In this document: positions 50,111 to 50,422 of the stretch, piece after piece
Position numbering within the stretch: position 1 is the stretch's first letter
How the letters are laid out: each line of letters opens with the position of its first letter
NCBI GenBank assembly: GCA_947494995.1
Contig: CANLWY010000002.1
Location: forward strand, 310,001-374,000
DNA: 64,000 bases
Origin: an uncultured Campylobacterales bacterium
GTDB taxonomy: Bacteria; Campylobacterota; Campylobacteria; Campylobacterales; Arcobacteraceae
Direction of reading: 5' to 3'
Program-made: the position numbers and the translations under genes
Notes under the pieces: generated by a model
Databases searched by the model: none
What the model saw: the letters and a program-made list of their open reading frames with translations, nothing else
Told to the model about the DNA's origin: nothing

Positions 50111-50341
50111 TTAAAGATTTAACTCTTTAATACGCTTAGTAATTTCAAAAATTCTTGGAAATTCTTGCGTGATATTTTTATCGTAGATAAGTTTTTCATC
50201 TACAAATACCTTAAAATCAATCTGTGCATTTTTTTGTATTTTAATATTCGACTCAGGGAAGCTCTCCCTTATTTCCTCTTCTACCCTAGAAGCTCTTGAC
50301 GAATATGTTCATTTTCCACAATAATAAATTTCTACATTCAT
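50111..50341 (-). CDS. SelW-like (Rdx family) selenoprotein with in-frame TGA
   Basis: A 76-residue thioredoxin-like protein that ordinary gene calling misses. Reading ATG (50341) through a TGA at 50311-50309 as selenocysteine gives MNVEIYYCGKU TYSSRASRVEE, which places U exactly in the CxxU redox motif of the SelW/Rdx family, followed by the expected family pattern (SFPESNIKIQKN, FKVFVDEKLIYDK, FPRIFEITKRIKEL) and a TAA at 50113. A 6-bp hairpin with GGG loop begins 17 bases after the TGA, as in bacterial SECIS elements. Likely a cytosolic thiol/selenol oxidoreductase. A nonsense mutation is unlikely, because the rest is intact and the stop falls on the catalytic residue. Confidence 0.85.
50278..50292 (-). 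promoter_or_regulatory. Bacterial SECIS-like hairpin
   Basis: In the RNA, stem CUUCUA / UAGAAG with loop GGG. The loop starts 22 bases after the UGA, within the 16-37 base window known for bacterial SECIS elements, and carries the required guanines. A second hairpin (AGGGAG / UUCCCU) follows further downstream. Confidence 0.75.
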
Positions 50342-50422
50342 TTGTAATCCTTTTAACTAGACAATTATAACAAAACAAAACTATTTTTAATAAGTAATAT
50401 TAATATTACATTAAATTTAATT

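What the first reader, a model, noticed from the sequence alone, without database searches (positions are those of the whole stretch)
50111..50341. SelW-like selenoprotein gene hidden by an in-frame TGA, with a SECIS-like hairpin
Seen: a 77-codon minus-strand frame with good start and stop, interrupted only by TGA at codon 11. The TGA lies at the fourth position of C-G-K-stop, exactly the CxxU redox motif of the SelW/Rdx family, and the rest of the protein follows that family. A 6-bp hairpin with a GGG loop starts 17 nt after the TGA (loop at 22 nt), inside the known bacterial SECIS window. Known: SelW-like selenoproteins have been reported from related bacteria. Inference: this one is expressed, probably with the adjacent Bem46-type hydrolase, and automatic annotation would miss or split it.
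Basis: partly seen in the sequence, partly recalled or inferred. Interest (0 to 1): 0.82.

Follow-up and report, generated by a model that had tools for sequence, protein, structure and literature searches.

The report
Ordinary SelW-type selenoprotein gene, unusually diverged
A small gene that looks broken by a stop codon is in fact almost certainly a normal bacterial selenoprotein W gene whose "stop" is read as selenocysteine, a type already known from related bacteria but easily missed by automatic annotation.

Summary
Window 50341-50111 (minus strand) encodes 76 codons plus stop, open except for TGA at codon 11, in C8-G-K-U11. With TGA read through, it matches Pfam Rdx/SelW at E=2e-16. The same genome holds selD (itself with an in-frame TGA), a tRNA-Sec with anticodon TCA, selA and selB in one cluster about 25 kb beyond the window, plus three formate dehydrogenase genes with in-frame TGA. 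All 16 of 104 same-family genomes with an Rdx gene have exactly one TGA in it. In 43 of 43 homologues read out, TGA sits at the same place, and the hairpin 17-31 nt after it keeps five base pairs through double compensatory changes. Cys paralogues in two genomes carry Cys exactly there. The hairpin alone is not significant in this one sequence; only the comparison shows it. SelW-like selenoproteins of Campylobacterota are published, NCBI has a family model, and the C. jejuni one has been seen by Ribo-seq and mass spectrometry. So this is a new member of a known kind. The operon with the Bem46-like hydrolase is unsupported beyond close spacing. New here: this copy has lost residues (nearly) invariant in 42 relatives (P15, G41), and its closest homologue is in another genus.

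The parts
50111..50341 (-). selW-like ORF, 76 residues + stop, read with TGA = Sec: MNVEIYYCGKUTYSSRASRVEEEIRESFPESNIKIQKNAQIDFKVFVDEKLIYDKNITQEFPRIFEITKRIKELNL
   Evidence: Pfam Rdx 60.2 bits vs cut-off 22.6; TIGR02174 47.1 vs 34.2
50309..50311 (-). TGA read as Sec11, last position of CxxU
   Evidence: TGA at the same alignment position in 43 of 43 homologues; Cys there in two paralogues
50278..50292 (-). SECIS apical hairpin, CTTCTA-GGG-TAGAAG
   Evidence: covariation over 27 distinct sequences; 38/38 keep five pairs; model hit 52.7 bits (this sequence is in the model)
50348..50353 (-). Shine-Dalgarno-like AAAGGA, 6 nt before ATG
   Evidence: sequence
   Evidence: linkage not found in any other selW locus held

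Best explanation
This is a SelW-type (Rdx family, thioredoxin-like fold) selenoprotein gene of an Arcobacteraceae-like bacterium. The UGA at codon 11 is decoded by tRNA-Sec, delivered by SelB bound to the hairpin that starts 17 nt downstream. The 76-residue product carries a CxxU redox pair, most likely forming a selenenylsulfide in small-thiol or protein redox reactions. Shown here: the homology, the Sec/Cys position, the covarying SECIS and the complete Sec machinery in the same genome. Inferred: that this copy is expressed, and its redox role.
For: Rdx match through the TGA. selD with in-frame TGA, tRNA-Sec TCA, selA and selB clustered at C2:399320-403668. Other TGA-containing genes in the genome: selD with its own 6-bp GGG-loop hairpin, and three formate dehydrogenases with ..RxU-H... 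One in-frame TGA in all 16 Rdx genes of the family and nearly all in the phylum sample. Same position and hairpin in 43/43; covariation; 38/38 vs 5.9 expected. Cys at the Sec position in tandem paralogues of G358 and G256. All 13 near-complete family genomes with Rdx have SelA. C. jejuni SelW: ribosome occupancy, termination peak and peptides past the Sec site (PMC11955535).
Against: This copy lacks residues invariant or nearly so in 42 homologues (P15 to S, G40 to Q, G41 to I, F53 to Y) and sits on a long branch (0.78 vs 0.10 for its sister), so its activity could be altered or decaying. NF041051 is matched below its curated cut-off (60.4 vs 88 bits). No expression data for this organism.
Confidence: 0.95

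Rival explanations
1. A decaying selW: the gene was a selenoprotein gene but this copy is under relaxed selection and no longer makes a working redox protein.
For: Four of 20 conserved columns changed, the most of 43 sequences; long branch; NG86 dN/dS about 0.52 against its sister versus 0.14-0.40 in four other pairs; presence is patchy in the genus, 3 of 16 genomes.
Against: Frame, C8, U11, SECIS, Shine-Dalgarno and the remaining conserved columns (Y7, R19, E23, F43, K55, F61, P62, E66) are all intact; one TGA and no other stop; dN below dS by NG86. YN00 gave dN above dS for the same pair, but the sequence is short.
Confidence: 0.1
2. An ordinary nonsense mutation in a Cys-type Rdx gene (pseudogene), with TGA by accident.
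For: None beyond the stop itself.
Against: Same TGA in homologues across three families of the phylum, conserved SECIS, Sec machinery present.
Confidence: 0.01
3. Two separate short genes or a chance open frame.
For: A hairpin this good arises in 13-19% of synonymous recodings, so the hairpin alone would not exclude chance.
Against: Rdx match over the whole frame at E=2e-16, with homologues continuous across the TGA.
Confidence: 0.005

Closest known systems
SelW-like selenoproteins of Epsilonproteobacteria/Campylobacterota (Cravedi et al. 2015, PMC4607533; NCBIfam NF041051 SelTWH_Campy; C. jejuni SelW on CJnc60, PMC11955535)
   Same: CxxU at the same place, length about 75-81 aa, 5-6 bp apical SECIS hairpin with invariant loop G, sel machinery, often missed in annotation
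   Different: this copy scores under the NF041051 cut-off and lacks P15 and the GG motif; different neighbours
SelW-like Sec proteins of other bacteria (PMC1794560; listed as PF10262, CxxU in PMC13188914)
   Same: family, motif, predominance of Sec over Cys forms in Sec-decoding organisms
   Different: other phyla
Rdx proteins of solved structure (2p0g, Selenoprotein W-related protein; 2fa8)
   Same: weak sequence match over the whole query (E 0.0017 and 0.012)
   Different: about 105 aa long; only distant relatives

Membership tests
Rdx/SelW (PF10262, TIGR02174) | domain match above curated cut-off | tested here: met
   60.2 vs 22.6 bits and 47.1 vs 34.2 bits
Rdx/SelW (PF10262, TIGR02174) | CxxC/CxxU near the N-terminus | tested here: met
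   C8-G-K-U11, aligned in 43/43
SelTWH_Campy (NF041051, equivalog) | score above curated cut-off of 88 bits | tested here: not met
   60.4 bits (query had Cys for Sec); a relative rather than a formal member of that equivalog
bacterial selenoprotein gene | in-frame TGA aligned with Sec or Cys in homologues | tested here: met
bacterial selenoprotein gene | SECIS hairpin with loop G downstream of UGA | tested here: met
   bSECISearch itself was not available
bacterial selenoprotein gene | selA, selB, selC, selD in the genome | tested here: met
   selC 46.8 vs gathering 47 bits, called tRNA-SeC(tca) by ARAGORN
bacterial selenoprotein gene | Sec incorporated in the protein | not testable with these tools
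   needs 75Se labelling or mass spectrometry

The most novel reading that the evidence does not exclude
The diverged copy, lacking the otherwise (nearly) invariant P15 and G41 and set next to an alpha/beta hydrolase, has taken on a changed redox partner or function, after transfer between genera of Arcobacteraceae.
Probability: 0.1. Interest if true: 0.35.

Novelty: new member of a known kind. Interest (0 to 1): 0.15.

Why it matters
It adds a well-supported, easily misannotated selenoprotein gene to Arcobacteraceae, with a covariation-backed SECIS shared by 42 relatives read out here. It does not change the picture of bacterial selenoproteins. The mildly interesting points are the fast-evolving copy, and the Sec-to-Cys tandem paralogues in which the hairpin appears lost.

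Tried and rejected
Rfam scan of the locus: no hit at all. Genome scan with the SECIS model for further selenoprotein genes: only this locus is strong; three of the next hits (E 0.03, 0.07, 0.95) were checked and have no TGA at the right place or no open frame around it. Search for close named relatives with the window protein: none; with an alignment: eight, mostly Arcobacter or Campylobacteraceae records. Hydrolase linkage in relatives: none. Promoter scan: no more sites than in shuffles. The named C. jejuni record was not held, and the 2017 Campylobacter selenium paper was not held.

Full report
Observation. The minus-strand frame 50341-50111 starts with ATG behind AAAGGA, ends with TAA, and has a single stop inside, TGA at 50311-50309, codon 11, giving C-G-K-U. 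With the TGA read through, the protein matches Pfam Rdx (60.2 bits, cut-off 22.6) and TIGR02174 (47.1 vs 34.2). It also matches NF041051, NCBI's own model for the Campylobacterota SelT/SelW/SelH (seleno)protein, but below the curated cut-off (60.4 vs 88). A whole-genome search with Rdx finds this place alone, with one TGA inside.

Sec machinery. The genome has selD (341 bits, with one TGA in the frame), selA (566 bits) and selB (301 bits) next to each other at C2:399320-403668. Between selD and selA, on the other strand, is a tRNA-Sec with anticodon TCA. The window is C2:310001-374000, so the cluster lies about 25 kb beyond its end. Three formate dehydrogenase alpha genes also have an in-frame TGA at ..R(L/I)-U-H.., and selD has its own six-pair GGG-loop hairpin after the TGA. 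The organism therefore very probably decodes UGA as Sec. Named relatives of the gene are mostly Arcobacter or Campylobacteraceae records, so the source is taken to be Arcobacteraceae-like; the genome itself is unnamed.

Relatives. In the same family 16 of 104 genomes have an Rdx gene, and every one carries exactly one TGA. In a sample of 397 genomes of the phylum 117 have a match, nearly all with one TGA. In 43 genes read out, the TGA is at the same codon of CxxU in every case. Two genomes have a tandem second copy with Cys in place of Sec (YCSSC, YCNVC), and their downstream sequence no longer shows the hairpin by eye. All 13 family genomes with Rdx and at least 90% completeness also have SelA; the two Rdx genomes without SelA are 74% and 86% complete.

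SECIS. In the window alone the hairpin proves nothing: 13-19% of synonymous recodings do as well. Over 27 distinct sequences, the five outer pairs are formed in every sequence, three of them with changes on both sides (UA/GC/AU/CG, CG/UA, CG/UA/AU/GC). The covariation score is 0.455 against 0.143 in shuffles, and sliding the arms destroys it. All 38 distinct sequences keep five pairs where 5.9 are expected from recoding. These sequences are related, so the counts are not independent events, but the several different pair types at one place point to repeated compensation. This agrees with the published 5/6-bp apical hairpin with an invariant loop G in epsilonproteobacterial selenoprotein genes (PMC4607533).

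Prior knowledge. SelW-like selenoproteins of Epsilonproteobacteria, including ones wholly missed in annotation, were described in 2015 (PMC4607533). SelW-like selenoproteins have few or no Cys homologues in Sec-containing organisms (PMC1794560). In C. jejuni the SelW frame on CJnc60 shows ribosome occupancy, a termination peak after the full-length stop, and peptides beyond the Sec site (PMC11955535). A 2026 review lists the family as CxxU, PF10262, predicted with high confidence (PMC13188914). The find is a new member of a known kind.

What is unusual. The window copy differs at four of 20 columns conserved in its relatives (P15S, G40Q, G41I, F53Y), more than any other of the 43. It groups with a gene from another genus (99/96 support) rather than with the two copies of its own genus, and its branch is about eight times as long as its sister's (few columns, so the tree is weak overall). 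dN/dS against that sister is about 0.5 by NG86, higher than in four other pairs, but the gene is short and YN00 gives a different picture. Together with presence in only 3 of 16 genomes of the genus, this suggests transfer or repeated loss with relaxed or altered constraint. It is a lead, not a demonstration.

Neighbourhood. The alpha/beta hydrolase begins 5 nt after the selW stop, so co-transcription is plausible, but no other selW locus held contains it. In the closest homologue's locus the genes just upstream are rhodanese-like (my reading of the translations), and a cold-shock-like gene is downstream on the other strand. A functional link to the hydrolase is therefore not supported.

Noticed in passing
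L096 (G358:C1) and L097 (G256:C1): Tandem selW pairs in which one copy has Sec (TGA, SECIS kept) and its neighbour Cys at the same place with the hairpin apparently gone; L098 (G207) has two tandem copies with TGA. A natural series of Sec-to-Cys exchange.
   Followed up: partly
L099 (G184:C1:253075-253275): A related selW-like frame whose start region has no clear CxxU (IAIV before the stop), possibly a frameshifted or decayed copy.
   Followed up: no
L014 (G036:C1), 651-1448: The closest homologue of the window gene has two rhodanese-like genes just upstream, a possible sulfur or selenium transfer context; identified by eye only.
   Followed up: no
L011 around 1489-1580 (C2:399308-399400): selD of this genome is itself a selenoprotein gene (GUAAK) with a six-pair GGG-loop hairpin after the TGA.
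   Followed up: yes
L080, L082, L083: Three formate dehydrogenase alpha genes with in-frame TGA; two lie within about 10 kb beyond the window's end.
   Followed up: partly
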